NCBI RefSeq assembly: GCF_001941625.1
Contig: NZ_CP016076.1
Coordinates: 1,426,001-1,490,000, forward strand
DNA length: 64,000 nucleotides
Reading direction: 5' to 3'
DNA from: Actinoalloteichus fjordicus
Lineage (GTDB): Bacteria > Actinomycetota > Actinomycetes > Mycobacteriales > Pseudonocardiaceae
Under the pieces are notes generated by a model. That model ran no database searches. It was not told the DNA's origin and saw only the letters and a program-made list of their open reading frames with translations. A program made the translations under genes and the position numbers. Below are positions 1,936 to 32,035 of the stretch, one piece after another (position 1 is the stretch's first letter; the number at the start of each line of letters is the position of its first letter).

Positions 1936-1936
1936 G

Positions 1937-3034: not shown

Positions 3035-3465
3035 ATCGAAGACGGCACAAGCGGAGTCGGAGCGGACCACCGGCGGTGGTCGCGTCCGGCTGCGCTGCCG
3101 CTCGGGTCGGGTTTCGCGGGCAGGTTCGGCCGCGCCCGATCGCCCGCCCTCGGGTTCGCGGGCCGAAGACGCCGCCGGACGGGGAACGCCGAGGTCGAGA
3201 GTGGCCCGGCGTTCCGTCGCGATCTCGCCGTCGGGTGGCGCCGCGCGGAACGGCATCCCCGACTCGTCGCCGTGTGTGCTTGTTTATCCCTCTTATCGAG
3301 TGAACGGCTGCCTGAGTGAGCGGCGCTAAGCCGTCTGTCTCTTGATGGGAAAATGCTCCATTGAATCCTCACTTAGGGTGTAATTCCCACGGCGGGGCAA
3401 TCATTTCCGACACCTTCAGGTAATACGGCCATTTGGGTGTCGAGCCCGCTGTTAGAGTCTTGTCT
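3035..3465. other. Intergenic region between mnmA and the biosynthetic cluster
   Basis: There is no convincing gene in these 431 bases. A short hairpin at 3065-3081 may end mnmA transcription. The last 100 bases are AT-richer than the surroundings and end in the promoter of the methyltransferase, with a TAGAGT hexamer at 3453-3458. Confidence 0.6.
3065..3081 (+). terminator. Candidate hairpin terminator after mnmA
   Basis: GACCACC and GGTGGTC form a perfect 7-bp stem around a three-base loop, 30 bases after the mnmA stop. There is no T-run, which is usual in high-GC actinomycetes. The support is only structural. Confidence 0.4.
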
Positions 3466-4539
3466 GTGATCGATTTCGAACACGATCGGCCGAAGACCCT
3501 GTCGGACCTGGCCGATCTGCTCACTCCTTGGGCAATTCGGGTGGCCGTCACGCTGCGGCTTCCCGAACTCGTCGACCAGGGCGTCACCACCGTGAGCGAG
3601 TTGGCGGCGCGGGTCTCTGCGGACGAGGTGGCGTTGGCCCGGCTGCTCCGTCTGCTCGTGTGCCGCGGTGTGTTCGTGGAATCGGCCGCAGGCGATCTCG
3701 CGCTCACCGAGGTCGCTCGCGAGATGATGGGCGGGGCCGCACGAAAGTGGCTCGACCTGGACGGCGCGGGTGGGCGGATGGAGACGGCCTACTCCGGTCT
3801 GCTGGAGTCGATCCGCACCGGTGAGGCCGCCTATCCGAAGACTTTCGGCTGTTCCGTGTGGCGTGACTTCGAATCGAGTCCTGCGCTGTCGGAGTCGTTC
3901 GGCTCCTATCTCGCCGAACTGGCAGGCGAGTGGGGTCAGGAGCTGGCGGAACGGCATGACTGGTCCGGCGTGTCGAAGGTCGTCGACGTCGGCGGCGGCG
4001 ACGGGACGCTGATCAGCACGTTGCTGCGGATCCATCCCACGATGCGCGGCGTGCTCGTCGATCTGCCCGCCACCGCGCTGGCCGCGCGGCAGCGACTCGC
4101 GGCGGCCGGGCTCGTCGATCGCTGCACGGTGGTCGAGGGCAGCTTCTTCGAACGGCTGCCCGACGGCGGTGACCTGTACGTCCTCGCGCAGGTCCTGCAC
4201 GACTGGCCGGACGCCGAGGCGGTCGCCATCCTGCGTCGCTGTGCCGAGGCGGCGGGCCGGGGCGGCAGGCTGCTGGTGGTCGAGCGGATCAGGTCGGACG
4301 AGTCGCCGAGCCGGGCGGCCGACGCCGCGTTCGCCGCGATGGACCTCCGTATGCTGCTGCTCTTCGGCAGTCTGGAGCGGTCTGCCGATCAGTTCGCGCG
4401 GCTCGCCGCCGAGGCAGGGCTGAGCCTGCGGTCCCGAGGGGACGTCGGAGAGCTGGGGCTGCTCGAATTCGTCGTCGATCCCGTGACCGCCGAGCGCGAC
4501 GAGGCGAGGCGACTGTCGGTGGCGGCAGGCCGGACCTGA
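3466..4539 (+). CDS. SAM-dependent O-methyltransferase
   Basis: This 357-residue protein has the layout of the Methyltransf_2 family (plant COMT and bacterial TcmN-type O-methyltransferases). A winged-helix dimerisation region comes first, then the SAM site VVDVGGGDGTLIS, and then VLHDWPDAEAVAILRR, which carries the usual catalytic H-D/W context. The start is a GTG seven bases after a TAGAGT -10-like hexamer, which suggests a leaderless message; an in-frame TTG 33 bases upstream is less likely. It opens the biosynthetic cluster, about 220 bases before the ligase gene. The likely role is methylation of a phenolic or enolic hydroxyl of the product. The substrate itself cannot be read from the sequence. 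Confidence 0.88.
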   Translation: MIDFEHDRPKTLSDLADLLTPWAIRVAVTLRLPELVDQGVTTVSELAARVSADEVALARLLRLLVCRGVFVESAAGDLALTEVAREMMGGAARKWLDLDGAGGRMETAYSGLLESIRTGEAAYPKTFGCSVWRDFESSPALSESFGSYLAELAGEWGQELAERHDWSGVSKVVDVGGGDGTLISTLLRIHPTMRGVLVDLPATALAARQRLAAAGLVDRCTVVEGSFFERLPDGGDLYVLAQVLHDWPDAEAVAILRRCAEAAGRGGRLLVVERIRSDESPSRAADAAFAAMDLRMLLLFGSLERSADQFARLAAEAGLSLRSRGDVGELGLLEFVVDPVTAERDEARRLSVAAGRT

Positions 4540-4761
4540 TCTTCCTGCTCTCGCCGCGCCGCGCCGTGGTCTGCTGACGTCCTGGTCGCCACTGGAGCTG
4601 CCGCCGTCGAACCGGCGGGACGTCACCTGGCCGTATTCGACGGCGAAATCTGCTCGATCCGAGAAATCGTGTCGGATCGGCTGCCGTGCCGATCCTGAAA
4701 TCAGCATGACGATTATTCAAGACTCGATCGACTCGGTCGGGTCACCGTGTGGCGAGATCGG

Positions 4762-6180
4762 ATGATCGTGACGATAGACGACAGACCGGCGGACTGGGAG
4801 GCCCTGTCCACCTGGATTGCCGAACTGATCGACGGCGCGGCCGACGACGTGGTGTGGATTCACGGCGATGAGAACGTGACCAGGGGCGATCTGATCGCCC
4901 GGGTCGAGGAATTCACGGATCTCTTTCAGCGGGACGGAATCGGCCCCGGCACTACGGTGGCCCTGCGCATCGGGCCCAGTTGCACGTTGTTCTACGTTCT
5001 GTTCGGGCTCTGGCGCTGCGGCGCCCAGGTCCTGTTGGTCGATTCACGCGCCAAACCCGCCGAGGTCGATCGCCTGTTCCGTCGGTACGAACCGCAGTTC
5101 GAACTGCACTCGGACACCGCAGGCGAGATTAGGGCGGTGTTCCGGGCGACCCGCGAGGTGCTGACCCGATCGACCGGCGGCGGTCGGCCTGCGCAGGGGC
5201 CGCACTGTCTGGTGCAGAGCAGTTCCGGGTCCACCGGACGACCCAAGATCATCGGCAGGACCGCGGCGTCGCTCCAGACCGAGCTGGACCGCATCGCCCT
5301 GCTGGCAGGCGCGCCCGCTGCGGGCGAACGAGTCCTGTTGCTCGGATCGATGTCGCACTCCTTCGGGCTGATCGTCGGGGTGCTGCACTCGCTGCGGGTG
5401 AACGCGACGCTCGTGCTCACCTTCAGCGTCCGACCGCGCGAGCTGCTGGATCTGGCCGCCCGGCAGGACGTCGCGATGATCCTCGGCGTCCCCACCCACT
5501 TCGAACTCCTCGCCTCGGTGTTCGACCCGCCCCCGCTGCCGAGCCTGCGGGGTGCGGTGTGCGCGGGCGACGTGCTCGATCGCGGCGTCTTCGATCTGGT
5601 CGAGCGCAGGCTCGGCATCCGGCTGGGTCAGGTCTACGGAATGACCGAGGTCGGCGTCATCGCCGCCGACCTGACCGGGCGGCTCGGCCCGCAGGCCGTC
5701 GGTGTCCCGCTGCCGGGGATCACGGTGCGCTGCTCGGGCGGCGAGTTGTTCATCGCCATCGACGAGACCCCCTATGTGCGGTCCGACGGCATCGTGCGGG
5801 TCGTCGACGGCTGGCTGCGCACCTTCGACCGCGCCGATCAGGACGCCGAGACGGGCGCGCTGCGCATCCTCGGCCGGACCGACTCGGTGATCGCCATCGG
5901 CGGACTCAAGGTCGACCTGACCGAGATCGAGGCGGTTCTGCACGAGCACGAGCAGGTCAACGAGGCCGTCGTGACCTACCACGAGGTGATCGAGGCTCAC
6001 GTCGGCGTCTCGGGCGTGTTGAGCACGGCGGACCTGTTGTCCTGGTGCCGAGAGCGCCTGAGCCACGTGAAGGTGCCCAAACGCGTGCACCTCGGTCCGG
6101 CGCTGCCGCGCACCGCCACCGGAAAGCTCATTCGTGACCGTGACCTGCTGCATGCCGCCCGCCCCAGGGTCGTTGACTGA
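4762..6180 (+). CDS. ANL-superfamily acyl/aryl-CoA or acyl-ACP ligase
   Basis: This is a 472-residue adenylate-forming enzyme. Visible core motifs are the phosphate loop SSGSTGRPK (about residues 154-162), the A5 motif YGMTEVG, an A7-like GWLRTFDRAD segment, the hinge LGRTDSVIAIGG and the C-terminal lysine motif in ATGKLIRD. It is shorter than most acyl-CoA ligases, as seen for ligases that load stand-alone carrier proteins. A GTG at 4747 in the same frame is an alternative start. An ACP gene follows after 17 bases with a good ribosome site (AGGAGAAG). My reading is that it activates a starter acid, probably aromatic given the chorismate-lyase-like neighbour, and loads it on an ACP. The substrate is inferred. 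Confidence 0.87.
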   Translation: MIVTIDDRPADWEALSTWIAELIDGAADDVVWIHGDENVTRGDLIARVEEFTDLFQRDGIGPGTTVALRIGPSCTLFYVLFGLWRCGAQVLLVDSRAKPAEVDRLFRRYEPQFELHSDTAGEIRAVFRATREVLTRSTGGGRPAQGPHCLVQSSSGSTGRPKIIGRTAASLQTELDRIALLAGAPAAGERVLLLGSMSHSFGLIVGVLHSLRVNATLVLTFSVRPRELLDLAARQDVAMILGVPTHFELLASVFDPPPLPSLRGAVCAGDVLDRGVFDLVERRLGIRLGQVYGMTEVGVIAADLTGRLGPQAVGVPLPGITVRCSGGELFIAIDETPYVRSDGIVRVVDGWLRTFDRADQDAETGALRILGRTDSVIAIGGLKVDLTEIEAVLHEHEQVNEAVVTYHEVIEAHVGVSGVLSTADLLSWCRERLSHVKVPKRVHLGPALPRTATGKLIRDRDLLHAARPRVVD

Positions 6181-6197
6181 ACCGACAGGAGAAGTGA

Positions 6198-6461
6198 GTG
6201 AAGACAGAGGTACGTGACTTCGTCGTCGAGGTGCTGCGTGACGTGCTGCACCTGGAGATCGGGCAGGACGTCACCGACGACACTCCGCTGGAACTGGAGT
6301 CCTTGTTCCTGGTCGAGCTGGTCGTGCAGGCCGAGGCGCGGTTCGGCGTCGGGCTGGACGACGAGGAGTTCTATCAGGACCCGCCCGGCACCATCGGCGC
6401 CCTCGTCCAGTTCATCGTCGACCGGCGCTCGGCGGCGCAGCCTTCCGGGGCCGTCACGTGA
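6198..6461 (+). CDS. Acyl carrier protein 1
   Basis: This is an 87-residue ACP. The phosphopantetheine serine is in the ELESLFLVELV helix-2 motif, where ELES replaces the classic DSL triad preceded by D. It starts with GTG after AGGAGAAG and ends in a GTGA overlap with the next ACP, so the two are probably co-translated. It is a likely receiver for the acid activated by the ligase upstream. Tandem small ACPs next to a ligase, a FabF-like synthase and a ketosynthase-like protein are also found in aryl-polyene pathways. Confidence 0.88.
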   Translation: MKTEVRDFVVEVLRDVLHLEIGQDVTDDTPLELESLFLVELVVQAEARFGVGLDDEEFYQDPPGTIGALVQFIVDRRSAAQPSGAVT

Positions 6462-6718
6462 TCAGCATGGAGGTCCTGCGTGCACTGCTGACGGAGGCGG
6501 GCGTGCCCGGTGCGACGGAGGACGTCGACGCGAACGCCCACGAGCTGGTGCTCGACTCGTTCTCGCTGGTCTGGTTCCTATACGTGCTGGAGGAACGGCA
6601 CGGAGTCTGGATCGATCCGCGCGATGAGGAGCTGACCGAGTTCACCTCCGTCGCGGGGCTGCACGAGTACCTCAACCGGGCCGGGCGATCAGTCTCGGAG
6701 GCACGGAGTGTCTGGTGA
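6458..6718 (+). CDS. Acyl carrier protein 2
   Basis: This is an 86-residue ACP-like protein. The candidate phosphopantetheine serine is in LVLDSFSLVWFLYVLEE. It starts at the GTG overlapping the previous stop; an ATG three codons later is possible. The helix after the serine is unusually aromatic (W, F, Y), so its partner surface may differ from that of ACP 1. Its 3' end overlaps the ketosynthase start by 11 bases. Two different ACPs may separate starter loading from extension; that division of labour is inference. Confidence 0.82.
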   Translation: MISMEVLRALLTEAGVPGATEDVDANAHELVLDSFSLVWFLYVLEERHGVWIDPRDEELTEFTSVAGLHEYLNRAGRSVSEARSVW

Positions 6719-7967
6719 GAAGGTCGTGGTGACCGGCTTAGGCGTCTTCACCGCCTTCGGGTTCGGTCTCGATGCGCTGCTGGGCGGCGTCTTCGCCGGT
6801 CGAGCCGCCTTCGGCCCCGTCCGGCGGTTCGACGTCAGTCGGTCTCGAGCGAGCCACGCCGCGATCTACCCGGCGGACGGGCCGGACTCGACGCGACTCG
6901 CGGCGTGGTCGGGCGGCTCCCCCGGACAGCGGTCCGTGGTGCTCGCCTGTGCACGGGACGCCCTGGCCGGTGCGGGTCTGCAGGGTCCGCTGGATGCCGC
7001 GTTGCTGCTCGGAACGGCAGGCGACGACGTCGCACACACCGACTTCTGGTCCGGCTTCGACAAGGCCGAGGCCCGGGCCTCGCAGGAGACCGCCACCTGC
7101 CCTTGGGACACCGACGGCGAGACGACCGACGAGGGCGGCGCCCTCGGCCTGTCCGACTGCGTGCCCGCGCATCTCGCCGAGGACGTCGCCCGCCGCCTGG
7201 GCCTGACCGGGCCGACCCGTGCCTTCGTCAACGCCTGCGTCGCGTCGACCAATGCGATCGTCCACGGCGCTGCCCTGATCCGCAGCGGTCGAGCCCACAC
7301 CGTGGTCTGCGGCGGCGCCTCCCTCGTCGGCCCGCACGCCTTCCGGAACTTCGACGCCGCCAAGGCCCTGACGAAAGCTCCTCGGATGCACCCCTTCTCC
7401 ACGGACCGCGCCGGTCTGCTGCTGGGAGACGGCGCCGCCATGCTCGTGCTGGAGTCCGAGACCAGGGCTCGACGTCGGGGCGCGGAGCCGTTGGGACGCC
7501 TGGAGGGCTGGGGGATGTCCGCCGACGCGCATCATCTGGTCCGGCCCGATCCGACCGGGGGAGGGGCGGCGGCCTCAGCGGCCTCGGCGTTGTGTCTCGC
7601 AGGCGTCGGCCCCGAACAGGTCGACTATGTCAACGCCCACGGCACCGCGACCCGGTCCAACGACGTTGCGGAGACGGCCGCCCTGCATCGAGTGCTGGGA
7701 TCACACGCCTCCTCGGTCCCGGTCAGCTCCACCAAGGGCAGCACGGGTCACCTGCTGGAGGCCACCGGAGCGGTCGAGCTGGTCATCGCGCTGCTGGCGT
7801 TGCGGGAGGGCATGGTGCCGCCGACCGTGGGCTACGGCGATCCCGATCCGGCGTGCGACCTGGACTACGTGCCGGAGGGACCCCGCCGGATCGCGCTTCG
7901 CCGGGTGCTCACGGTGAACTCGGCGGTCGGCGGGCTGAACACCGCGATCCTGGTGGGCAGGCCGTGA
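6708..7967 (+). CDS. Stand-alone beta-ketoacyl synthase (FabF/KS-alpha-like)
   Basis: This is a 419-residue condensing enzyme. The full Cys-His-His set is present: the nucleophile in VNACVAS, the first histidine in NAHGTAT and the second in KGSTGHLLEATGA. The N-terminus VVVTGLGVFTAFG is typical of FabF-like enzymes. It starts with GTG inside the end of the ACP 2 gene and overlaps the next gene by four bases (GTGA). It should extend an ACP-bound starter by decarboxylative Claisen condensation. There is no ketoreductase or dehydratase gene in the window, so it may catalyse only one or a few non-reduced extensions. Confidence 0.92.
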   Translation: MSGEKVVVTGLGVFTAFGFGLDALLGGVFAGRAAFGPVRRFDVSRSRASHAAIYPADGPDSTRLAAWSGGSPGQRSVVLACARDALAGAGLQGPLDAALLLGTAGDDVAHTDFWSGFDKAEARASQETATCPWDTDGETTDEGGALGLSDCVPAHLAEDVARRLGLTGPTRAFVNACVASTNAIVHGAALIRSGRAHTVVCGGASLVGPHAFRNFDAAKALTKAPRMHPFSTDRAGLLLGDGAAMLVLESETRARRRGAEPLGRLEGWGMSADAHHLVRPDPTGGGAAASAASALCLAGVGPEQVDYVNAHGTATRSNDVAETAALHRVLGSHASSVPVSSTKGSTGHLLEATGAVELVIALLALREGMVPPTVGYGDPDPACDLDYVPEGPRRIALRRVLTVNSAVGGLNTAILVGRP

Positions 7968-8860
7968 CCGCCGCGACGGGCTCCGGTCCCGCCAGCTCCG
8001 CACCGGTCACCGATGCGCCTGTCCCGCAGGGAGTTCTCGAGGTCGTCGAGGCCGCCTGCCTGCTGCCCTGGGGGGCGGCCGCCGCCGGTCTGCCCGGTGC
8101 GGCCGAACGGGCGCTGCCGCCGTTGCCCGGCTTCGCGATGTCCCGGTTCTCCCCGCTGGTGGCCGAGACCGCCCGGCGGCTCCTCAGGGCGGCGGCTGCT
8201 CGGGCGCCGATCGACGGCGGTGCCACCGGGATCGTGCTCGCCACCTTGTTCGGCGACTCGACCACCGTCGACCAGCACACCCGCCGCCAGCTTCGCGGCC
8301 TGCCGCATAATCCGTTGTTCTTCTACGAGTCGGTGCACAGCGCGGGCGTCGGCATGGTCGGCATCGAACACGGCATCAGCGGCCCGGTCTCCTGTCTCTC
8401 GCTGCGCCGCGATTTCACCGCGGAGGCGCTGGCGAGTGCCGATCTGCAGCTGGACGACGACGGAGTCGAACAGGTTCTGCTGATCGGCGTCGAGTTGGCG
8501 CCGACCGAGCGCACGCGCGCCGTCCACCGGCAGTGGGCGGCTGCGGACCGAGGTGAATCGCTGCCTGCGGACGATGTCGGCGTCGCGTTGCTGCTCCGTC
8601 GACCACGCGATCACGATGCCGTGGTCACCGACGGTGCCGTTCCCGACGACGAGCAGGCCACCGCTCTTCCCGGCCGTCGGCCCCGTCCGGCGGGGAACAC
8701 CACCGGCCTGCTGCCCGCACCCGGCGACTCGGAGCGCGAGCTGCTGGGACACCTCGCCGGGCTCGTCGCCGTCTGCTCGGCCCTGGACCGGGTCCGTGCC
8801 TCGGATCTCACCGGCTCGCTGCTGGTGAGATCCACGTCCGATTTCCGTCCTCACTCGTGA
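7964..8860 (+). CDS. Beta-ketoacyl synthase-like protein, nucleophile not visible
   Basis: This 298-residue protein is shorter than a normal ketosynthase. It keeps the first-half landmarks: LLP, the SRFSPLVAETARRLL helix, a TGIVLATLFGD strand, NPLFFYESVHSAGVGM and GISGP. These resemble the Ketoacyl-synt_2 group (coronafacate and aryl-polyene chain-length-factor-like proteins) and, more distantly, KS-beta subunits. At the place where a ketosynthase has TACA(T/S) there is no cysteine; the only nearby cysteine is in GPVSCLSL. No His motifs follow. It overlaps the KS gene by four bases, so a KS/CLF-like heterodimer is my inference. The family assignment is by pattern only. Confidence 0.65.
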   Translation: MTAATGSGPASSAPVTDAPVPQGVLEVVEAACLLPWGAAAAGLPGAAERALPPLPGFAMSRFSPLVAETARRLLRAAAARAPIDGGATGIVLATLFGDSTTVDQHTRRQLRGLPHNPLFFYESVHSAGVGMVGIEHGISGPVSCLSLRRDFTAEALASADLQLDDDGVEQVLLIGVELAPTERTRAVHRQWAAADRGESLPADDVGVALLLRRPRDHDAVVTDGAVPDDEQATALPGRRPRPAGNTTGLLPAPGDSERELLGHLAGLVAVCSALDRVRASDLTGSLLVRSTSDFRPHS

Positions 8861-8878
8861 CCAGCAGGGAGTGCCACC

Positions 8879-9685
8879 GTGTCCGCAGCGACGGGTAGCG
8901 ATGCGATGACCCCACAGCGGCAGGCCGCTGGGGCTCCGGAGCGGCAGGCCGCTGGGGCTCCACAGCGGCGAGCCGCTGCAACGCCGGAGCGGCGAGCCGC
9001 TGGAACGCCGGAGCGGCGAGCCGCTGGAACTCCACAGCGGCAGGCAGCAGGCGGGACGCCGATCGTCTCGGCGGACGACCTGATCGACGATCCCGTCGAC
9101 GGTGTGTCCGGGGCCTTCGGCGCCGCGATCACCAGGCGAATACTGGAGCATCGCGGTTCGACGACGGCACTTCTGACGGAGCTTTCGGGCGCGACCATCT
9201 CGCTACGGCTGCTGGAGCAGCGGATCGTCGATCGGTTGCTGGTGCCCGCCGACGTCGCCTCGGTGCTGCGTGCCACCGCCGAACGGGCCGAGGTGATCCT
9301 GCGCCGCTCCGCCCTGTTCGACGTGGGGGAGCGGTTGCTCTCGCTGAACTGCACCGTCGCGCCGGTCGGTCTGCCGGAGGACGTGGCGACGGCGCTGACC
9401 AGTGCGCAGACTCCGATCGGGATCGGGCTTGACGGTCTGGGCCTCGCCCAACGACGCGAGTTCAGGGCGCGTGGTCGCACGCGCTGGCCCGGCCGGGCCA
9501 CAGGACGCTGTGCCTTCCGTGAGTACCTGATCCTGCTGGACGACCAGCCCGTGTTGTTCGTGCACGAGGCTTTCAACCCGGCGCTGTTCCCGGTCGACGA
9601 GGTGCCGGTGGGCCCGACGCCCGCCTTTCTGCAGTCCGGGCCCGCAGGCCTGGTGCTCGGCCCGGCGGATGGTCGATCGGCATGA
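8879..9685 (+). CDS. Chorismate-lyase-like (UbiC/DUF98-type) protein with repetitive N-terminus
   Basis: This is a 268-residue protein started by GTG after an AGCAGGGA site. Residues 12-59 are six copies of an eight-residue unit (TPQRQAAG and variants). The folded part, roughly 75-255, resembles the chorismate lyase/UTRA fold: RSALFDVGERLL, an LPEDVATAL segment, the PIGIGL turn and REYLILLDDQPVLFVHEAFNP. Such enzymes release 4- or 3-hydroxybenzoate from chorismate and supply aromatic starters (XanB2 and related systems). That would suit the neighbouring ligase and ACPs. The family call rests on motif order alone and is moderate. The stop overlaps the NRPS start (ATGA). Confidence 0.55.
   Translation: MSAATGSDAMTPQRQAAGAPERQAAGAPQRRAAATPERRAAGTPERRAAGTPQRQAAGGTPIVSADDLIDDPVDGVSGAFGAAITRRILEHRGSTTALLTELSGATISLRLLEQRIVDRLLVPADVASVLRATAERAEVILRRSALFDVGERLLSLNCTVAPVGLPEDVATALTSAQTPIGIGLDGLGLAQRREFRARGRTRWPGRATGRCAFREYLILLDDQPVLFVHEAFNPALFPVDEVPVGPTPAFLQSGPAGLVLGPADGRSA
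8912..9055 (+). repeat. 24-bp coding tandem repeat, six units
   Basis: There are six head-to-tail units of exactly 24 bp inside the chorismate-lyase-like gene. Each carries the near-palindrome AGCGGCrrGCCGCT; the last copy is degraded. The same core recurs, in another reading frame, inside the next gene at 10111-10170. Confidence 0.9.
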
Positions 9686-12600
9686 CTGACGCGATCGACC
9701 CGCCCCAGTCCGTCGGTGCGACATCGCGGGCCGCACCACCCGCCGACGCGGCGCATCCTGCCTCGGCTCTCGGCTGCCTGACCAGACAGGACGGTTCGTC
9801 ACTCGATGCATCGGCGGCCGAAGCAGGAACGCCTGCCGAGCAGGCGCTTCCCCTCACCGTCGCCCAGAACGAGATCTGGCTGGCACAGCGACTGAATCCC
9901 GCCGATCCGGCCTACAACACCGGCGGATGTCTGGAGATCCCCGGTCGGCTGCGTCTCGCGGAGTTCGTGACGGCGCTGCGGACGGCGGTGCGTGAGACGG
10001 AGTGCCTGCGGGTCCGTTTCACCGAGCAGGACGGCGAGATCCGACAGATGGTCGGCGACGCGGACGAGCTCGACCGCGTCGTGCGGGAGTGGCTGGTGAT
10101 CAGGGACGTCAGCGGCGAGCCGCTACGTGGTCCCAGCGGCGAGCCGCGATACGGCTCCAGCGGCGAGCCCGATCCGGCGGCCACGGCGGTGCGGTGGATG
10201 CACGAGGACCTGGCGGTGCCGCGTGATCCGCTGCGCGACCGGCTGTTCGGGTTCGCGGTGTTCATCCTGTCCGCCGATCGGGTGCTCTGGTACCAGAACG
10301 TGCATCACCTGCTGCTCGACGGCTACAGCAGCGCCCTGCTGCTGCGGCGGGTCGCCTCGGTGTACTCGGCCTTGGTCGCGGGCACGCCGCTGCCCGCGAC
10401 GCCGTTCGGACCGCTGGCCGCCCTGCTCGCCGAGGAGACCGCCTACCGAGGCTCCGCTGCGGCGGGGCGCGATCACGAGTTCTGGACGGATCGGCTTGCC
10501 AAGGCCGCCGAGACGGGCGGCGAGGCCGTCGTCTTCGGCGCCGCGCGGCGCGGACGCGGCGCGGAGGGGGTCGCTCCCGGTGCTTCCGCGGTGGTGCCGC
10601 ATCGCGCGACGGGTCCGCGCTCGTCGGACGGGGCGACGCCGGAGCGCATCCTGCCCTCGGCGGTCGTCGTCGAAGCCGGTGCGGGGGAGGCCGCCGTCAT
10701 CCCCCTTCAGCCTGCGCCGCAGGTGCCCGGGACATCCCGGGGATCGGTCTCCCTGCCAGGGTCGACCCTGCCCGGATCGAACCCGATCACCGACTTCCCG
10801 CTGTTCGCACCCGTCGTCCCGTTCACCGTGCCTGCCGACACCGTGCCCGTCGTGCCGACCTCGACGGCGTCGGTCTCCACGGCGTCGGTCCCGGTCGACG
10901 CCGAGGAGACCGATCGGAGCGAACGGGCACCGTCCGACTCGTGCTCGTCGGCCCAGCACCGCACCTCGGTCCTTGCCGGACCTCCGCCCATCACCCCGCC
11001 CGCCCTCCCGGCGGCGTCGGCAGCCTGCTCCGCGCTGCCGGATTCCGCGTCACGGAGCCGATGGCGGCTGCGGTGGTCTCCCGAGGACACCGCCCGGTTG
11101 TCGGCGGCGGCGCGTCGATCCGGCACCGGGTGGAGCGTGTTCCTGCTCTCCGCACTCGCGGGCTTCCTGACGCCGCCGAACGGTCCGCAGGAGGTGACGC
11201 TCGGCCTGGCCGTCAAGGGCCGTACCGGCGGTCTGGCCCTGAGCGTGCCGGGCATGACGGCCGACATCCTGCCGCTGCGGATTCCGATGCCGCCGTGGCA
11301 GACCCCCGCCGAACTCATCCGCCAGGTGGCCGCCGAGGCCAGGGACGTGGTGCTGCATCAGCGGCTTCCGCAACGCGAGCTGCGGGCGATGCGTGATTCC
11401 GCCGACCATCGACCGCTCTACGGCGTGACGGTGAACATCAACCGGGTCGGCAGGCCGCTCCGTTTCGCCGGTGAAGTCGCGAGCCTGCATCAGTTCGAGT
11501 CCGGCGGGCGCCAGGCAGGCCTGAGCATCGACGTCCACGACGGCCCCGACGGCGGCATCGACATCGATCTTCTCGGCGACCCCGGCCACGGTGCCGAACC
11601 GGACCTCGCCGCGCTGGGCCGTCGGCTGGCGGACTACCTGGCCGAGTTCGTCGCTCTCGACGCCGCCCGGCCGATCGCGGCGATTCCTCGGGTCCGGGAC
11701 GATGAGCGAACGACGCTGCTGCGCTGGGGCGCGGGCAGCCCGCCTCCGCCGGAGCGAACCCTTGCCGCGCTGTTCGCCGAGCAGACCGCCGCCACGCCCG
11801 CCGCGCCCGCCGTCGTCTTCGAGAATCGGGAATGGAGCTACACCGAGCTGAGCGCGCGAGTCAACCGACTCGCCAGGCTGCTGGTGTCCCGAGGCGTCGG
11901 ACCGGAACGAGTCGTGGCTGTCGCGCTGCCTCGCACGCCCGACTCGGTGGTCGCGACGCTCGCGGTGATCGTGGCGGGCGGTGCCTTCCTGCCGATCGAC
12001 GGCGAGCTGCCCCCCGATCGAATCCGCACCATGTTGTCCGATGCGAGGCCGATGCTGCTGATCACCGATCAGGCGGGCGCCACCGCTCGGCGCGACGACG
12101 TGGACCGAAGCTGGACGCTGCTCGATCAGGACTCGGCCGAAGTGCGGTCCGAGCTTGCGGCGCTGACCGCCGAGCCGCTGGAGGACGCCGACCGCCTCGC
12201 GCCGTCGGCCCCGGCCGATGCCGCCTATCTGATCTACACCTCGGGCTCGACCGGCGTCCCCAAGGGCGTCGTCGTCGAGCATCGAGGCCTCGCCGCGCTC
12301 GCCGCCACCCGGCGCATCGGCTGGACGGTGGAGCCGGGGGATCGGGTCCTGCGGTTCGCCTCGCCGGGATTCGACGCCGCCGTCTGGGAGCTGCTCCAGG
12401 CGATCACCAACGGCGCCGCACTGGTCTGCGCGCCCGCGCACCGGCTGCGGCCGGGACCGGAACTGACCCGGCTCCTCGCCGAGCAGCGCGTCACCCACGT
12501 GGTGCTGTCGCCGTCGACGGTGGCGGCGCTGCCTCCCGACGGCCTCGCCGACGTCCGGACGCTGGTGGTCGGCGGTGAGGCGTGTCCGCCGGACCTGGTA

Positions 12601-13884
12601 CGGCAGTGGGCAGGCACTCGCGTGCTGATCAACGCCTACGGCCCGACCGAGGTCACGGTGTGCGCGACGATGAGCGATCCGCTGGCCGAGACGGACCGGC
12701 CTGCGGTGGGCCGCCCCGTGCCGGGAATGCGAGTGCTGGTCCTGGACGCCTCGCTGCGGCTGGTGCCGCCGGGAACGGTGGGCGAGGTGTATCTCGCTGG
12801 CCCCGGCGTGGCCAGGGGCTATCTGAACCAGCCCTCGTTGACGTCGCTGCGCTTCCTGCCCGATCCGTTCGGCCCGGTCGGCGCCCGGATGTACCGGACC
12901 GGTGACCTGGCCTGTTGGGATGCCGACGGCAGGCTGCACGTGACGGGGCGGACGGACTCGCAGGTCAAGATCCGGGGCGTCCGCATCGAACTCGGTGAGA
13001 TCGAGTCGGTGCTCGTCGACCATCCCGAGGTCGCCTCGGCCGCCGTCGTCGTCCGCGAGGACCATCCCGGCGATCCCCGGCTGCACGCCTACCTGCGGCC
13101 GGTGGCGGGGGCGTCGCCCACCTCGGACGCCGTGCGCGAACACTGTGCCAGGACGCTGCCCCGACATCTGGTGCCCTGGCGCTGCGAATTCCTCGTTGAC
13201 CTGCCGCGCACCACCTCGGGGAAGGTCGATCGACGTGCACTGGCCGCCAGGAGCCTGCCCGCCGAGCCGGTCTCGACGCGATTCGTCCCGCCACGCGGCG
13301 GGCTGGAGAAGCGGGTCGCCTCGGTGTGGCGGGAGGTGCTCGGCCGCTCGATGATCGGCTCGCAGGACAACTTCTTCGACCTCGGCGGGCACTCGCTGTC
13401 GATGACCCGACTGCACACGGCCCTCGTCGACCTCGTAGGCCGTGACATCCCGCTCGCCGATCTGTACGCGCATCCGACGGTGGCCGAGCAGGCCCGACTC
13501 CTTGCCGACGGGGCGGAGTCCGCCCCGGGGCACTCGACCCCGAGGCAAGCGGCGCCGTGGGACGGGCGAGGGCGGCCCACGAGCCCGGCAGGCCCGGCGG
13601 CCCGGGCAGGCGCGGAGTCGGCGCCCGGTCCGGAGCCGGGGCCGGGGGCGGGTTTCGCGGGCTTCATGGCGGTCTGCCCGGAGTCGGAGCCGGTTGCAGA
13701 CGGCGCGGAGCCTGCTGCGGCCGCGGAGTGCGAGGTGGCGGCTGGCCAGGAGTCTGATGTGGCGGCCCGCCCGGAATCCGATGTGGCGGCCCGCCCGGAA
13801 TCCGATGTGGCGGCCCGCCGCCGTCACACCATCGCCGCGAGGAACTCGGTCAGGACACGAAGAGGAGCACCGCACGATGGCTGA
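9682..13884 (+). CDS. Nonribosomal peptide synthetase, C-A-PCP
   Basis: This is a 1400-residue single module. The condensation domain starts near residue 55 (LTVAQNEIWLAQR) and has an intact HHLLLDG at 208-214. A Pro/Ser/Thr-rich insert of about 175 residues (285-460) separates the two lobes of the C domain. The adenylation domain spans about 697-1190, with IYTSGSTG at 851-858, YGPTE, and the lysine motif TTSGKVDRRAL (Lys1181). Aligning by hand to GrsA gives the pocket code D-A-W-V-V-G-A-V-C-K, which suggests a bulky hydrophobic or aromatic amino acid; treat this as a guess. The carrier serine is Ser1238 in LGGHSL. A low-complexity tail with DVAARPES repeats follows. There is no thioesterase domain. 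It overlaps its neighbours on both sides. Confidence 0.95.
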   Translation: MTDAIDPPQSVGATSRAAPPADAAHPASALGCLTRQDGSSLDASAAEAGTPAEQALPLTVAQNEIWLAQRLNPADPAYNTGGCLEIPGRLRLAEFVTALRTAVRETECLRVRFTEQDGEIRQMVGDADELDRVVREWLVIRDVSGEPLRGPSGEPRYGSSGEPDPAATAVRWMHEDLAVPRDPLRDRLFGFAVFILSADRVLWYQNVHHLLLDGYSSALLLRRVASVYSALVAGTPLPATPFGPLAALLAEETAYRGSAAAGRDHEFWTDRLAKAAETGGEAVVFGAARRGRGAEGVAPGASAVVPHRATGPRSSDGATPERILPSAVVVEAGAGEAAVIPLQPAPQVPGTSRGSVSLPGSTLPGSNPITDFPLFAPVVPFTVPADTVPVVPTSTASVSTASVPVDAEETDRSERAPSDSCSSAQHRTSVLAGPPPITPPALPAASAACSALPDSASRSRWRLRWSPEDTARLSAAARRSGTGWSVFLLSALAGFLTPPNGPQEVTLGLAVKGRTGGLALSVPGMTADILPLRIPMPPWQTPAELIRQVAAEARDVVLHQRLPQRELRAMRDSADHRPLYGVTVNINRVGRPLRFAGEVASLHQFESGGRQAGLSIDVHDGPDGGIDIDLLGDPGHGAEPDLAALGRRLADYLAEFVALDAARPIAAIPRVRDDERTTLLRWGAGSPPPPERTLAALFAEQTAATPAAPAVVFENREWSYTELSARVNRLARLLVSRGVGPERVVAVALPRTPDSVVATLAVIVAGGAFLPIDGELPPDRIRTMLSDARPMLLITDQAGATARRDDVDRSWTLLDQDSAEVRSELAALTAEPLEDADRLAPSAPADAAYLIYTSGSTGVPKGVVVEHRGLAALAATRRIGWTVEPGDRVLRFASPGFDAAVWELLQAITNGAALVCAPAHRLRPGPELTRLLAEQRVTHVVLSPSTVAALPPDGLADVRTLVVGGEACPPDLVRQWAGTRVLINAYGPTEVTVCATMSDPLAETDRPAVGRPVPGMRVLVLDASLRLVPPGTVGEVYLAGPGVARGYLNQPSLTSLRFLPDPFGPVGARMYRTGDLACWDADGRLHVTGRTDSQVKIRGVRIELGEIESVLVDHPEVASAAVVVREDHPGDPRLHAYLRPVAGASPTSDAVREHCARTLPRHLVPWRCEFLVDLPRTTSGKVDRRALAARSLPAEPVSTRFVPPRGGLEKRVASVWREVLGRSMIGSQDNFFDLGGHSLSMTRLHTALVDLVGRDIPLADLYAHPTVAEQARLLADGAESAPGHSTPRQAAPWDGRGRPTSPAGPAARAGAESAPGPEPGPGAGFAGFMAVCPESEPVADGAEPAAAAECEVAAGQESDVAARPESDVAARPESDVAARRRHTIAARNSVRTRRGAPHDG
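10111..10170 (+). repeat. 24-bp repeat in the NRPS condensation domain
   Basis: About two and a half units with a 24-bp period are read as SGEP-containing repeats. The core AGCGGCGAGCC is the one seen at 8912-9055, but it is translated in a different frame. Confidence 0.8.
13732..13820 (+). repeat. 24-bp repeat in the NRPS C-terminal tail
   Basis: About 3.7 units with a 24-bp period encode repeats of DVAARPES. The first unit is diverged and the next two are identical. Confidence 0.85.
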
Positions 13885-16800
13885 TGGTTTCGCAGGCGCT
13901 CGCGAATGGGACGTCGCGATCATCGGGATGGCGGGCCGGTTCCCCGGCGCGCAGGACCTGGACGAGTTCTGGGCGAATCTCGTCGCGGGCCGCGAGGCCG
14001 TGCGCCCGATCAGCGACGAGGAGTTCCTCGCCGCCGGGGGCGATCCGGCGCTGCTGACCGACGACACCCATGTCCGGGTCGCGCTGTCCATGCCGGACGC
14101 CGATCGCTTCGACGCCGAGTTCTTCGGCTTCCTGCCCACCGACGCGGCGATGCTCGATCCGCAGCAGCGCGTCTTCCTGGAGACCTGCCAGCACGCCTTG
14201 GAGGACGCAGGCCACGACCCGGACCGCCCGGCAGGCCCGATCGGCGTCTACGCCGGCTCCAGCCAGAACGAGTACTACCTGTCGCATGTCTACCCGCGTT
14301 ACGGCGGCGAGTTCTCGATGACCAGCATGGTGGCCAAGGTCGCCAACCTGCCCGACACGCTGGCGAACCGCGTCTCCTACGCGCTGAACCTGACCGGGCC
14401 CGCCTTCGCCGTGCAGACGGCGTGCTCCACCTCGCTCGTCGCCGTCCACCTCGCCTGCCAGGACCTGCTGAACCTTCAGTGCGACACGGCGCTGGCGGGC
14501 GGCGTCACCGTGATCCCCGACAAGCTGGGCTATCGGTACGTCGAGCAGGGCGCCTACTCGCCGGACGGCCGATGCAGACCGTTCGACCGGGATGCCGCGG
14601 GCTTCATCGGCGGCGACGGCGTCGGCGTCGTGGTGCTGCGGCGCCTGACCGACGCGCTCGCCGACGGCGACCACATCCGCGCCGTGATCAAGGGCACCGC
14701 GATCAACAACGATGGTTCCGGCAAGGCGAGCTTCACCGCGCCGAGTCGGGCGGGCCAGACCGCCGCGATCCTGGCCGCGCAGGCGAACGCCGAGATCGAC
14801 GCCGCCGACATCGGCTATGTGGAGGCGCACGGCACCGGCACGTTCGTCGGCGACCCCATCGAGGTCGCCGCGCTGAGCGAGGCCTTCCGACGGGGCACCG
14901 ATCGCCGAGGCTTCTGTGCGCTGGGCTCGGTGAAGGCCAACGTCGGTCACCTGGACGCCGCCGCCGGAGTCACCGGGCTGATCAAGACGGTGCTCACGCT
15001 GGAGCACGGCCTGATCCCGCCGCATCCGAACTTCACCCAGCCCAACCCGACGATCGACTTCGAGAGCAGTCCCTTCCACGTCAACACCGAGCCGATCGAC
15101 TGGCCGGGCACCGGGCCGCGCCGGGCGGCCGTCAGCTCCTTCGGCGTCGGCGGCACGAACGCGCATGTCATCCTGGAACAAGCCCCGCCGAGCAGCACGG
15201 GCGAGGCGGCTCCGGAATGGACGGTGCTACCCCTGTCGGCCCGGACCCGAGGCGATCTGGAGCGGATGAGCGCCGACCTCGCGGACCATCTGGCCGCCCG
15301 GCCCGGACTCGACGTCCACGACGTCGGGCACACCCTGCGCGTCGGCAGGCGTGCCCTGCCCTACCGGCGGACGGTGGTGTGTCACGACCGGGACAGCGCG
15401 GTCCATCGCCTCCGACTGCCCCTCGCACCGCAGCTCGCCCCGGCAGGCGCCCGCCCCGTCGTCCTGCTCTTCGGCGGCGGCGGCGCCCAGTACGACGGGA
15501 TGGGACGAGAGCTCTACGAGACGCAGCCGGTCTTCCGCGCCGAGTTGGACCGCTGTGCGGAGATCCTGCGGCCGGTGCTCGACCGGGATCTCCGCGCCGT
15601 ACTCCACCGAGGCGAGCGGGGCCTCGTGCCCGGCGTGCTGGCCGGGCTGCTGAGCACCCAGTACGCGGTCGCGCGGCTGCTCATGGCCGCCGGCATCACC
15701 CCGACCGCCCTGCTCGGACACTCGCTCGGCGAGTACACCGCCGCGTGCCTGAGCGGGGTGATCTCGCTGGAGGACGTCCTGCCGCTGATGGTGGAGCGCG
15801 AACGACTGATCAGGCGGGCGGGCGGCGCCACCCTCAGCGTGTTCCTCGGCGAGGCGGAGCTGACGCCGTATCTCACCGAGCGACTGTCGTTGGCGGCGAT
15901 CAACGCGCCACAGGTCTGCTCGGTGTCCGGTCCCGCCGAGGACGTCGCCGATCTGCGCGCCAGGCTCGACCTGGCGGGCGTCGGGAATCGGCGGCTCGAC
16001 GTGGCGGGCGCCGCGCACTCCTGGCTGCTCGACGCGATCCTGCCCGACTACGAGGCGGCATTGGGCCGGGTGACGCTGGGCGCCCCGACCGTGCCGTACG
16101 TCTCCAACGTGACGGGCGAGTGGATCACCGAGGAGCAGGCGACCGACGTGGGCTACTGGCTCGGCCACCTGCGCGGCACGGTGCGCTTCGCCGACGGTCT
16201 GGCCACGTTGGCCGGGCAGGACGACCCGATCCTGATCGAGGTCGGCCCCGGCCGAGGGCTGGGCAGGCTGGCCACGGAGTGCCTCGGATCGGAGACGGTC
16301 GTCGTCCAGGCCGCGAAGAGCCGCGAGGAGGAGCGCCCGGACTCGGCCGTGCTGCTGGGCGCACTCGGACGACTGTGGACCGAGGGAGTGGCGGTCGACT
16401 GGGCGGGCGTGCTGCCGCCTGGCAGGCGAGTCCCCCTCACCCGCTACCCGTTCGCACGGCGACGACACTGGCTGGACCGGGTCGTCCGTCACGCGACGGG
16501 CGAGGCCCTGACCGGCGATTCGGTGGATGCGCCCCTCGCGGCACCGGATCGCCGGGACGGGTCGAACGGCACCGGCGCCTCCGCCGCCGTGGATCGAGCG
16601 GAGCGCCGGACGACGGTGAACGGCTCGGCGAAGGACGGGAACGGCCGGGACCTCGGCGATCTACGGCCGACCTCCGATCCTCGGGACGGCGGAGTGGCTG
16701 GGAACGACTCGGGAATGCCGTGCGCGCTCGGCCGCAGCAGTCTCCAGCCGCGTCCGATGCTGACCACGCCGTTCCGCGAGCCCGCCACCGAGCTGGAACG

Positions 16801-17029
16801 AGCGGTGGCCGAATGCTGGCGAACGGTGCTCGGCATCGACCAGATCGGCGTCGACGACGGCTTCTTCGAGCTCGGCGGCGACTCGCTGCTGGTGCTGCGG
16901 ATGGCGTCTTCGGTCCGCGACCGGCTCGGGGTGCGGTTGGTGGTGCGCATGGTGTTCGACCTGCCGACGGTCGCCGGGGTGATCGCGGCCATCGCGGCGG
17001 CCGAGCAGCCGTTGCCGAGCCGAGACTGA
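13877..17029 (+). CDS. Modular type I polyketide synthase, KS-AT-ACP
   Basis: This is a 1050-residue module. The start is the ATG at 13877, after a GAGGAG site and eight bases inside the NRPS end. The ketosynthase has its nucleophile Cys183 in TACSTS, then EAHGTGT and NVGHLDAAAG. The acyltransferase has Ser616 in GHSLGE. The specificity loop reads GAAHS where malonyl enzymes have HAFHS and methylmalonyl enzymes YASHS, so extender choice is uncertain (malonyl favoured). There are no reductive domains between AT and ACP, only a low-complexity linker. The ACP serine is Ser1003 in LGGDSL. There is no thioesterase or reductase at the end. It should add one unreduced ketide to the NRPS-bound intermediate; how the product leaves is not encoded here. 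Confidence 0.95.
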   Translation: MADGFAGAREWDVAIIGMAGRFPGAQDLDEFWANLVAGREAVRPISDEEFLAAGGDPALLTDDTHVRVALSMPDADRFDAEFFGFLPTDAAMLDPQQRVFLETCQHALEDAGHDPDRPAGPIGVYAGSSQNEYYLSHVYPRYGGEFSMTSMVAKVANLPDTLANRVSYALNLTGPAFAVQTACSTSLVAVHLACQDLLNLQCDTALAGGVTVIPDKLGYRYVEQGAYSPDGRCRPFDRDAAGFIGGDGVGVVVLRRLTDALADGDHIRAVIKGTAINNDGSGKASFTAPSRAGQTAAILAAQANAEIDAADIGYVEAHGTGTFVGDPIEVAALSEAFRRGTDRRGFCALGSVKANVGHLDAAAGVTGLIKTVLTLEHGLIPPHPNFTQPNPTIDFESSPFHVNTEPIDWPGTGPRRAAVSSFGVGGTNAHVILEQAPPSSTGEAAPEWTVLPLSARTRGDLERMSADLADHLAARPGLDVHDVGHTLRVGRRALPYRRTVVCHDRDSAVHRLRLPLAPQLAPAGARPVVLLFGGGGAQYDGMGRELYETQPVFRAELDRCAEILRPVLDRDLRAVLHRGERGLVPGVLAGLLSTQYAVARLLMAAGITPTALLGHSLGEYTAACLSGVISLEDVLPLMVERERLIRRAGGATLSVFLGEAELTPYLTERLSLAAINAPQVCSVSGPAEDVADLRARLDLAGVGNRRLDVAGAAHSWLLDAILPDYEAALGRVTLGAPTVPYVSNVTGEWITEEQATDVGYWLGHLRGTVRFADGLATLAGQDDPILIEVGPGRGLGRLATECLGSETVVVQAAKSREEERPDSAVLLGALGRLWTEGVAVDWAGVLPPGRRVPLTRYPFARRRHWLDRVVRHATGEALTGDSVDAPLAAPDRRDGSNGTGASAAVDRAERRTTVNGSAKDGNGRDLGDLRPTSDPRDGGVAGNDSGMPCALGRSSLQPRPMLTTPFREPATELERAVAECWRTVLGIDQIGVDDGFFELGGDSLLVLRMASSVRDRLGVRLVVRMVFDLPTVAGVIAAIAAAEQPLPSRD

Positions 17030-17124
17030 GTGAGCCGATGTGTGCGCGGGCCGAGTACGGGCGGATCGAGTACGGAGCAGCTGCGTGCGAGGGCCGGGCC
17101 GAGAACGAATGAGGTGTTCAGACG

Positions 17125-17343
17125 ATGACCGACTTCTTCGCCGATCCGGCGTCGCGGGTCCGGGTGCTGGTGGACGACGAGGGCAGGCATGCGCTCTGGC
17201 CGGTCCGCGCGCCGACGCCGCCGGGCTGGCTGGTCAGCATGGCGGAGGGTACCCCGGCCGAGTGCCGCGATCATGTGATCGCGCACTGGCCGGGACCGGT
17301 GTTCGGCGTCGACGACCCGGCCGACACGGCCGGGCCGGTCTAG
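17125..17343 (+). CDS. MbtH-like protein
   Basis: This is a 72-residue protein of the MbtH family, small partners that bind and activate NRPS adenylation domains. The conserved tryptophans and their context are visible: HALWPV, PPGWLVSM, and AECRDHVIAHW. The N-terminus is slightly diverged from the usual NPF start (MTDFFADPASRVRV). It lies 95 bases after the PKS and is preceded by GAGGTG. Its presence in the cluster supports the view that the C-A-PCP protein needs a partner for amino acid activation. Confidence 0.9.
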   Translation: MTDFFADPASRVRVLVDDEGRHALWPVRAPTPPGWLVSMAEGTPAECRDHVIAHWPGPVFGVDDPADTAGPV

Positions 17344-17414
17344 GCCTTCCTGGACGAAGGCGCCCGTCCACCCCGCTGGAGAGGACGGGGCGGATCGGTG
17401 ACGCCTGCGCCCCG

Positions 17415-31801: not shown

Positions 31802-32035
31802 TCTCATCCTCAGATCGAACGAACACAGGTGACAGCTCGGCACCTATAGTCGCCCGCCCAGGGCGCGCAGGCTCGCGATATTCGGACGGCACATTCTGGT
31901 CTTCGACGTAATCCGGGCATGGAGAATCCAACATCTGCCGTGAGTGCGGGCGCTGCCGAGTGCGGTCCGGCCGGGGCGGCGGCCGTCGATCCCGATCGCG
32001 CCCGGCACACCCGACGCGCGATCAGGAGCGGGCCG

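What the first reader, a model, noticed from the sequence alone, without database searches (positions are those of the whole stretch)
4762..9685. Aryl-polyene-like initiation set fused to an NRPS-PKS line
A ligase, two different ACPs, a FabF-like synthase, a Ketoacyl-synt_2-like protein and a chorismate-lyase-like protein form one run of overlapping or closely spaced genes. This combination is known from aryl polyene and xanthomonadin pathways. Here the ketoreductases and dehydratases are missing, and the run continues without a break into a C-A-PCP NRPS and a KS-AT-ACP PKS. The inferred logic is chorismate to hydroxybenzoate, loading on an ACP, one or few condensations, then transfer to an amino acid and one more ketide. 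I know of no described pathway with exactly this gene order.
Basis: partly seen in the sequence, partly recalled or inferred. Interest (0 to 1): 0.85.

Follow-up and report, generated by a model that had tools for sequence, protein, structure and literature searches.

The report
Aryl starter cassette feeding NRPS-PKS
A marine actinomycete carries an uncharacterised natural-product gene cluster in which a known kit for extending an aromatic acid, here apparently supplied by a chorismate lyase, runs straight into a one-amino-acid, one-ketide assembly line, so its product can be predicted and tested.

Summary
4747-9685 holds an AMP ligase, two ACPs, a ketosynthase (KS), a half-size chain-length factor (CLF) and a chorismate-lyase-like protein, overlapping or closely spaced, running into a C-A-PCP NRPS and a KS-AT-ACP PKS.

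The interpretation needs correcting. The first five genes match, in order, A1-A5 of the characterised ava (avenalumic acid) and cma (p-coumaric acid) clusters, and the KS falls in a 100/100 clade with KSs of such loci. The cassette is ava/cma/manumycin-type; aryl polyene systems share the half-CLF and paired ACPs. Its usual 3-amino-4-hydroxybenzoate (AHBA) genes are missing (PF01959 not found in 3 of 3 Actinoalloteichus genomes). A divergent Rv2949c-like chorismate lyase sits in the run, predicting a 4-hydroxybenzoate starter. Missing ketoreductase and dehydratase genes do not prove a beta-keto product: cma borrows fatty-acid enzymes.

Likely product: a 4-hydroxycinnamoyl (or 4-hydroxybenzoylacetyl) amide of one amino acid, extended by one C2 unit, possibly closed to a pyrrolinone. 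No product was seen in the paper listings searched. In two surveys of 296 class genomes only this genome had both markers. New variant of a known kind.

The parts
3433..4539 (+). O-methyltransferase (PF00891 + dimerisation), probably first gene of the cluster
   Evidence: Pfam 140.3 bits; best PDB hit 3i53, E 2e-71; same place in both sister genomes
4747..6180 (+). AMP-dependent acyl-ACP ligase (A1-like); alternative ATG at 4762
   Evidence: PF00501 116.7 bits; 44-49% identical to 12 ligases of AHBA-type cassettes
6198..6461 (+). ACP1, A2-like by position, predicted malonyl carrier
   Evidence: PP-binding 28.0 bits; Ser kept in the alignment
6458..6718 (+). ACP2, A3-like by position, predicted aryl-starter carrier
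   Evidence: PP-binding E 0.013, below cut-off; DSF Ser kept, Trp39 matches CmaA3 Trp38, Tyr42 replaces His41
6708..7967 (+). Ketosynthase, A4-like, Cys-His-His triad present
   Evidence: PF00109/PF02801; C177 and H348 invariant, H311 nearly so in alignment A3; tree
7964..8860 (+). Half-size chain-length factor, A5-like, Arg149 in the column of the active Cys
   Evidence: PF13723 22.0 bits, under cut-off; Foldseek CLF hits incl. ApeC 6qsp_B; weak profile alignment to the KS
8879..9685 (+). Rv2949c-like chorismate lyase, predicted 4-hydroxybenzoate former; conserved part from about 9068
   Evidence: PF01947 14.1 bits itself, two relatives over cut-off; 2nwi E 4e-8 with a six-row profile; contexts of relatives
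9682..13884 (+). NRPS C-A-PCP; HHLLLDG and LGGHS motifs intact
   Evidence: Pfam; alignment of three species
13877..17029 (+). Type I PKS KS-AT-ACP, no reductive domains, no TE
   Evidence: Pfam; alignment of three species
17125..17343 (+). MbtH-like protein; no counterpart seen beside the A. hymeniacidonis-sized genome's cluster
   Evidence: PF03621 50.1 bits
17415..18185 (-). Discrete thioesterase (GHSMG)
   Evidence: PF00975 150.4 bits; conserved in both sister genomes

Best explanation
This is a hybrid biosynthetic cluster whose front end is an ava/cma-type type II PKS cassette re-tooled for 4-hydroxybenzoate. Proposed steps. (1) The Rv2949c-like lyase cleaves chorismate to 4-hydroxybenzoate (inferred). 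(2) The A1-like ligase loads it on ACP2 (inferred from AvaA1/CmaA1, where loading on A3 was shown by others). (3) The KS with its half-CLF condenses it with malonyl-ACP1, most likely once (inferred; the number is not determined). (4) Host fatty-acid-synthase KR and DH turn the beta-keto product into 4-coumaroyl-ACP, or the unreduced 4-hydroxybenzoylacetyl chain goes on (open, about 60:40). (5) The NRPS condensation domain N-acylates one hydrophobic or aromatic amino acid (inferred). (6) The KS-AT-ACP module adds one C2 unit, probably malonate (inferred). (7) Release by the discrete TE or by attack of the amide nitrogen, giving a tetramate/pyrrolinone; the O-methyltransferase caps the phenol or the enol (speculative, below 0.4). 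Shown here: gene content, order, conservation, intact catalytic motifs, family kinship. Not shown: any enzyme activity or product.
For: Five-gene order identical to A1-A5 of ava and cma (against the table in PMC10777205). KS in a 23-row clade (100/100) with KSs of AHBA-type and related loci, apart from FabF-like rows. Of 21 loci compared (chosen by KS similarity), 21 have the half-CLF and 13 the GriI/GriH-like pair (L020 and L109 appear to be the same genome; L019 is a short contig piece; L113-L115, whose KS had no cassette neighbours, were left out). The pair tested in L104 is DeoC aldolase + DHQS II, and L104 has the 3-aminoavenalumate diazotase over its cut-off, 998.5 vs 975 bits. PF01959 (DHQS II): 0 of 3 Actinoalloteichus genomes; of the ten genomes searched, present in the 5 whose loci carry the pair and absent from G130 and G078, which have other suppliers. 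The lyase profile hit 5 of 19 genomes; at the cassette only in the 3 Actinoalloteichus. Lyase family; relatives lie beside FAD hydroxylase and UbiA genes or DAHP synthase genes. Overlapping or closely spaced genes from 4747 to 17029. C domain HHxxxDG, PCP, KS, AT and ACP motifs intact in three species.
Against: The lyase protein itself scores below the PF01947 cut-off (14.1 vs 22 bits), its A. hoggarensis-sized ortholog gives no Pfam hit and the A. hymeniacidonis-sized one 15.4 bits, a profile of the three finds no lyase structure, and its single-sequence fold was worthless (pLDDT 34); so its activity is inferred from more distant kin and context, and 4- and 3-hydroxybenzoate are not told apart. 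Many lyase relatives have other neighbours than those I cite. The cassette lacks A6, A7, B and any KR. The half-CLF model is mediocre (pLDDT 64.7, TM about 0.4) and the KS-CLF profile match is weak (51.9% probability). The amino acid and AT unit are not settled. That the ACP hands over to the NRPS rests on gene order alone.
Confidence: 0.7

Rival explanations
1. The cassette is an aryl polyene / xanthomonadin-type set captured by an NRPS-PKS cluster: two ACPs, KS plus half-CLF, 4-hydroxybenzoyl start, iterated to a polyene.
For: ApeC is also about half the size of its KS and aryl polyene clusters also have two ACPs (PMC8358021 passages); Foldseek hits ApeC 6qsp_B at rank 4; aryl polyenes are 4-hydroxybenzoyl compounds.
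Against: Order matches ava/cma, and identity to AHBA-type loci is 44-49% for the ligase (12 rows) and 52-56% for the KS (6 rows); KS clade 100/100 with such loci; no KR, DH or second stand-alone KS among the proteins of the run.
Confidence: 0.07
2. The starter is not 4-hydroxybenzoate: the lyase-like protein makes 3-hydroxybenzoate or has lost activity, and the ligase takes another aryl acid from the cell.
For: Sub-threshold family score and no structure hit from the three close orthologs; the ligase and ACP2 differ from AHBA systems, which shows a change of starter but not to what.
Against: Columns invariant in the seven-row family alignment are kept, among them R79, G118, R130, G136, W140, E167; several family contexts point to 4-hydroxybenzoate use.
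Confidence: 0.15
3. Cassette and NRPS-PKS sit side by side but make two separate products, or the cluster is silent and partly decayed.
For: No proven hand-over; the cma cassette makes a free acid; the A. hymeniacidonis-sized genome lacks the MbtH gene here.
Against: 4 and 8 base overlaps join lyase, NRPS and PKS; same order kept in three species at about 56-90% protein identity with no stop in the NRPS or PKS.
Confidence: 0.1

Closest known systems
cma cluster (p-coumaric acid, Kutzneria albida) and ava cluster (avenalumic acid, Streptomyces sp. RI-77), PMC10777205
   Same: Ligase, extender ACP, starter ACP, KS, CLF in the same order; related KS lineage; no DH in the cma cluster; cma does one condensation
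   Different: No AHBA synthases (H, I), no diazotase (A6), no A7, B, D, E, no KR (A8) or CmaG; a chorismate-lyase-like gene instead; runs into NRPS and PKS rather than releasing a free acid
Manumycin-type clusters (lower chain primed with 3,4-AHBA; PMC8000086 passages read)
   Same: Related ligase, ACPs, KS and half-CLF (L018, L022, L101, which I take for manumycin-type)
   Different: These loci carry the AHBA gene pair and a 408-residue protein that in L101 is a 5-aminolevulinate synthase, plus further ligases; none of these are in the window cluster
Aryl polyene (Ape) clusters, PMC8358021 passages read
   Same: Two ACPs, KS with half-size CLF, 4-hydroxybenzoyl starter
   Different: Ape clusters have KR, DH and a second KS; no NRPS-PKS continuation is described in the passages read
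Xiamenmycin lyase XimC (PMC4053376 passages read)
   Same: A small UbiC-unlike chorismate lyase in an actinomycete, shown to make 4-hydroxybenzoate, in a cluster with a UbiA-type gene as in several relatives here
Althiomycin and chalkophomycin methoxypyrrolinone ends (PMC3445576, PMC11085572 passages read)
   Same: Amino-acid module, then one PKS extension and a stand-alone O-methyltransferase; the chalkophomycin PKS also lacks a TE
   Different: Other starters; our O-methyltransferase is closest by sequence to 3i53 (recalled as the aromatic-acid methyltransferase NcsB1), so it may act on the phenol

Membership tests
ava/cma-type type II PKS cassette | Ligase-ACP-ACP-KS-CLF in order A1-A5 | tested here: met
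   against the table
ava/cma-type type II PKS cassette | KS groups with A4-type KSs | tested here: met
   100/100 clade of 23 of 38 rows including L021 (Kutzneria buriramensis) and L104; AvaA4/CmaA4 themselves not in the tree
ava/cma-type type II PKS cassette | Starter ACP carries the Trp/His ligase-contact pair of CmaA3 | tested here: inconclusive
   Trp39 kept, His replaced by Tyr42
ava/cma clusters as a whole | 3,4-AHBA synthases H and I | tested here: not met
   No PF01959 match in the whole genome or the two sister genomes
ava/cma clusters as a whole | Diazotase A6 and denitrifying A7 | tested here: not met
   No such gene among the cluster's proteins as scanned; whole genome not searched for them
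Aryl polyene cluster | KS with half-size CLF and two ACPs | tested here: met
Aryl polyene cluster | Own KR, DH pair and second KS | tested here: not met
   No such gene among the window proteins scanned between 3433 and 18185
Rv2949c-like chorismate lyase (PF01947) | Profile score over the curated cut-off | tested here: not met
   14.1 vs 22 bits; relatives L133 23.7 and L135 23.1 pass
Rv2949c-like chorismate lyase (PF01947) | Homology over the fold | tested here: met
   Six-row profile A7 to 2nwi, E 4.2e-8, positions 26-174 of 189; not reached with the three close orthologs alone. That 2nwi is a lyase-family structure is recalled; the entry is named 'hypothetical protein'
Rv2949c-like chorismate lyase (PF01947) | Makes 4-hydroxybenzoate from chorismate | not testable with these tools
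   Needs an enzyme assay
Methoxypyrrolinone-forming NRPS-PKS end | Amino-acid module followed by one unreduced PKS extension and an O-methyltransferase | tested here: met
   as gene content only
Methoxypyrrolinone-forming NRPS-PKS end | Ring closure on the amide nitrogen | not testable with these tools
   Needs product analysis

The most novel reading that the evidence does not exclude
The ligase-ACP-ACP-KS-half-CLF cassette is a portable aromatic-acid extension unit in actinomycetes whose starter is changed by swapping the neighbouring supply gene: AHBA synthases, a fused aminodeoxychorismate synthase (L103), an HPPD-like dioxygenase (L112; gene clusters shared with L116, L117) or a chorismate lyase (here). 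In Actinoalloteichus it has been spliced in front of a minimal NRPS-PKS to give a type II PKS to NRPS to type I PKS relay that makes an N-(4-hydroxycinnamoyl) or N-(4-hydroxybenzoylacetyl) pyrrolinone or tetramate.
Probability: 0.3. Interest if true: 0.72.

Novelty: new variant of a known kind. Interest (0 to 1): 0.56.

Why it matters
The five-gene cassette has biochemically studied homologues, so starter, loading and chain length can be tested at once with known assays. If the reading holds, nature's own exchange of the starter supply gene, with matching changes in the ligase and starter ACP, shows how such systems accept new aromatic acids, and how a discrete type II PKS can be coupled to an NRPS. 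It also puts a concrete product prediction on a cluster that, as far as I saw, has appeared only as a line in antiSMASH tables.

Tried and rejected
Aryl polyene / xanthomonadin membership: rejected on order, identity and the KS tree; Rhodanobacter rows that I first took for possible xanthomonadin KSs lie in a different context (L025), so no aryl polyene KS is in the tree. Beta-keto-only logic from missing KR/DH: not accepted as proof after reading how cma works. A short-chain dehydrogenase at 31040-31843, 13 kb downstream, could be a KR, but I saw no counterpart in the flanks of the two sister genomes; not counted. Cispentacin-type hits for ACP1 (NF058660, 30.1 vs cut-off 80) and KS (NF058662, 202.9 vs 325): below cut-off, dropped. 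Identity of the published cluster: order of NRPS loci along the chromosome makes ours the second, hence probably entry 4 (Nrps-t1pks, 'PK-NRP hybrid, glycosylated', also in A. hymeniacidonis and A. hoggarensis, not in A. spitiensis or A. cyanogriseus) of the table in PMC5676828, and perhaps entry 4 of the A. hymeniacidonis table, which names no other bacterium for it (PMC5168871 passages). I found no glycosyltransferase among the window proteins I scanned (selected ORFs, not all). XimC kinship could not be tested for want of its sequence; the Streptomyces survey (30 of 343 genomes hit, 33 matches; 27 of these matches looked at as loci and 3) showed 7 of the 27 loci with both PobA-like and UbiA-like neighbours, others with ligase, DAHP synthase, sugar or unrelated neighbours, two (L184, L199) where my script matched no lyase gene, and no clear xim cluster. 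Amino-acid code read by eye from motif positions that I recalled (D-A-W-V-V-G-A-V-C-K): not decisive between Phe- and Leu-like. AT motif GAAHS: not assigned. Structure model of the lyase: useless. Three-row lyase profile against PDB: no lyase hit. Profile match of half-CLF to KS and its PDB sequence hits are weak; kept only with the fold search.

Full report
Where it is. The window's genome is one contig of 7,120,854 bases, the exact size given for Actinoalloteichus fjordicus DSM 46855 (PMC5676828, passages). The two other genomes of the genus held here, 6,606,717 and 6,306,207 bases, match the sizes stated there for A. hoggarensis (6607 kbp) and A. hymeniacidonis (6306 kbp). These names are therefore inferred from size.

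The observation. The six genes exist as described, with the corrections given in the observation check. They belong to a run from 3433 to 17343 plus a minus-strand thioesterase at 17415-18185. The set and order recur in the two sister genomes (lyase found in 3 of 3 genus genomes), except that no MbtH gene was seen in the A. hymeniacidonis-sized one. The tRNA-modification gene mnmA and a cysteine desulfurase lie upstream in all three. Downstream genes (an ArsO-like flavoprotein, an ABC protein and others) are partly shared, so I place the border at the thioesterase.

What the cassette is. A family-wide search with the KS found matches in 25 of 150 genomes at E 1e-60. Around the stronger ones the same neighbours recur: ligase, two ACPs, KS and a short KS-like protein; three weaker ones that I fetched (L113-L115) had no such neighbours and were left out of the comparison. 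In 13 of the 21 loci compared (window and sister genomes included; L020 and L109 appear to be one genome) proteins of two further clusters lie close by. In L104 these are an aldolase and a 3-dehydroquinate synthase II, the marks of 3-amino-4-hydroxybenzoate synthesis. L104 also has the 3-aminoavenalumate diazotase over its cut-off. This led to PMC10777205 (full text parts 1-3 of 4 read): in the ava and cma clusters the genes A1 (ligase), A2 (malonyl ACP), A3 (starter ACP), A4 (KS), A5 (CLF) stand in that order, A1 loads the aryl acid on A3 in vitro, and cma performs one condensation and makes p-coumaric acid. The window has the same five in the same order. A maximum-likelihood tree of 38 KSs that I chose (18 of them from the 80 loci) puts the window KS in a clade of 23 (100/100) that holds all the cassette KSs included, apart from FabF-like KSs; inside it the three Actinoalloteichus KSs form their own branch (100/99). 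L167, a different arrangement that I had added, falls outside, on a long branch whose place the tool calls unsure.

The half-CLF. 7964-8860 has the N-terminal half of a KS only; PF13723 matches at 22.0 bits under its cut-off of 25. A model made with five relatives has mean pLDDT 64.7. Its best PDB hits are the ishigamide CLF and, at rank 4, ApeC, with FabF-type KSs scoring nearly as well; [quoted passage not shown] The column of the catalytic Cys holds Arg149 (the alignment is weak).

The starter. The lyase-like protein scores only 14.1 bits with PF01947. A profile of the three Actinoalloteichus orthologs finds more distant relatives (10 of 200 order genomes at E 0.01, own genome counted; the best three others at 1e-21, 1e-17 and 3e-12). 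A seven-row profile hits 13 of 296 class genomes at 1e-6 (own counted) and 30 of 343 Streptomyces at 1e-5. Two relatives pass the PF01947 cut-off. The seven-row profile, one row of which (L136) is itself a PF01947 member, hits PDB 2nwi at 8e-12; without that row 4e-8; with the three close orthologs alone there is no such hit. Relatives sit beside PobA-like hydroxylase and UbiA-type genes (L134, L161, L174, L176, L177, L179-L182), beside a FAD hydroxylase alone (L133, L135, L163 and others), or beside DAHP synthase genes (L175, L187, L197; L166 about 5 kb off); the first and last are contexts expected of 4-hydroxybenzoate makers. Pfam was run on L133, L134, L166, L175, L187 and L197 neighbours; the rest rest on BLAST similarity, and 'PobA-like' is my name. 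Many other relatives have different neighbours. XimC, a small UbiC-unlike actinomycete lyase, was shown by others to make 4-hydroxybenzoate (PMC4053376 passages); whether it belongs here I could not test. Conversely PF01959 was not found in the three Actinoalloteichus genomes and, among the ten searched, was found in the five whose loci carry the aldolase/DHQS pair; G130 and G078 lack it too.

Signs of adaptation. Ligase residue 273 is Ala in the three Actinoalloteichus proteins and Gly in 12 of 12 AHBA-type ligases; of four ligases from loci with other suppliers three have Ala and one Gly. It is one of 19 such columns, and that it lines the pocket is recalled knowledge. In ACP2 the Trp of the CmaA3 ligase contact is kept and the His is Tyr in the window and A. 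hoggarensis-sized rows, against His in 4 of 4 others shown.

How common the combination is. In two surveys of 296 class genomes, drawn by the tool in the same way (I could not see the whole lists), the lyase profile hit 13 and the half-CLF profile 10; only the window's genome is in both hit lists. Among 19 genomes chosen by me, 16 of them outside the genus, the lyase profile hit 5: the three Actinoalloteichus at the cassette, and two others (G109, and weakly G022) elsewhere in the genome. One genome (G389, L167) has a lyase relative about 5 kb from a KS, a KS-like protein, a ligase and ACPs, without a half-CLF profile hit's list.

The NRPS-PKS. C, A, PCP, then KS, AT, ACP, no reductive domains, no built-in TE; motifs intact in three species. 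The A-domain pocket read from recalled motif positions is hydrophobic or aromatic. One amino acid plus one malonate plus a stand-alone O-methyltransferase is the gene content proposed for methoxypyrrolinone ends in althiomycin and chalkophomycin (PMC3445576, PMC11085572 passages); in chalkophomycin the PKS likewise lacks a TE. The O-methyltransferase here is closest to 3i53, which I recall as an aromatic-acid methyltransferase, so methylation of the phenol is at least as likely.

Against my reading. No activity or product is shown; the lyase is sub-threshold for its own family; the number of condensations and the reduction state are open; hand-over to the NRPS rests on gene overlap and conservation.

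Literature. In the listings I saw no paper describing a product or function for this cluster. The listings were capped (one search showed 25 of 79 papers, 12 of 69, 12 of 13, 5 of 6), and the library holds open-licence papers only. The original ava paper and the asukamycin papers were not read.

Noticed in passing
L103 13877-16021 (G130): A cassette of the same kind stands beside a fused aminodeoxychorismate synthase (TIGR00553 362 bits, over its cut-off of 328) instead of AHBA synthases: a probable 4-aminobenzoate-primed variant.
   Followed up: partly
L112 5066-6999, also L116, L117, L170: A further cassette type with an HPPD-like dioxygenase (TIGR01263, 314 bits, tested in L112), an ectoine-hydroxylase-like oxygenase and, in L112, a diverged diazotase relative (474 bits, cut-off 975); starter unknown.
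   Followed up: partly
L175 1390-2883, also L173 and L178: The lyase domain is carried on a protein of about 490 residues whose C-terminal part matches class II DAHP synthase, with a class I DAHP synthase gene directly upstream (families tested in L175).
   Followed up: partly
L167 (G389) 852-13021: A lyase relative, a FAD hydroxylase, ACP-like proteins, KS, KS-like protein and ligase within 13 kb, beside a sugar-nucleotide gene: a different-looking aryl pathway (read by eye, no family search).
   Followed up: no
window 10505-11050: The NRPS condensation domain holds about 170 residues of low-complexity insert in this species and the A. hoggarensis-sized genome, largely missing in the A. hymeniacidonis-sized one.
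   Followed up: no
window 17125-17343: The MbtH gene is kept in the A. hoggarensis-sized genome but no counterpart was seen beside the cluster in the A. hymeniacidonis-sized one.
   Followed up: partly
window 3433-18185: The published table calls the probable matching cluster 'glycosylated', but I saw no glycosyltransferase among the window proteins scanned.
   Followed up: partly
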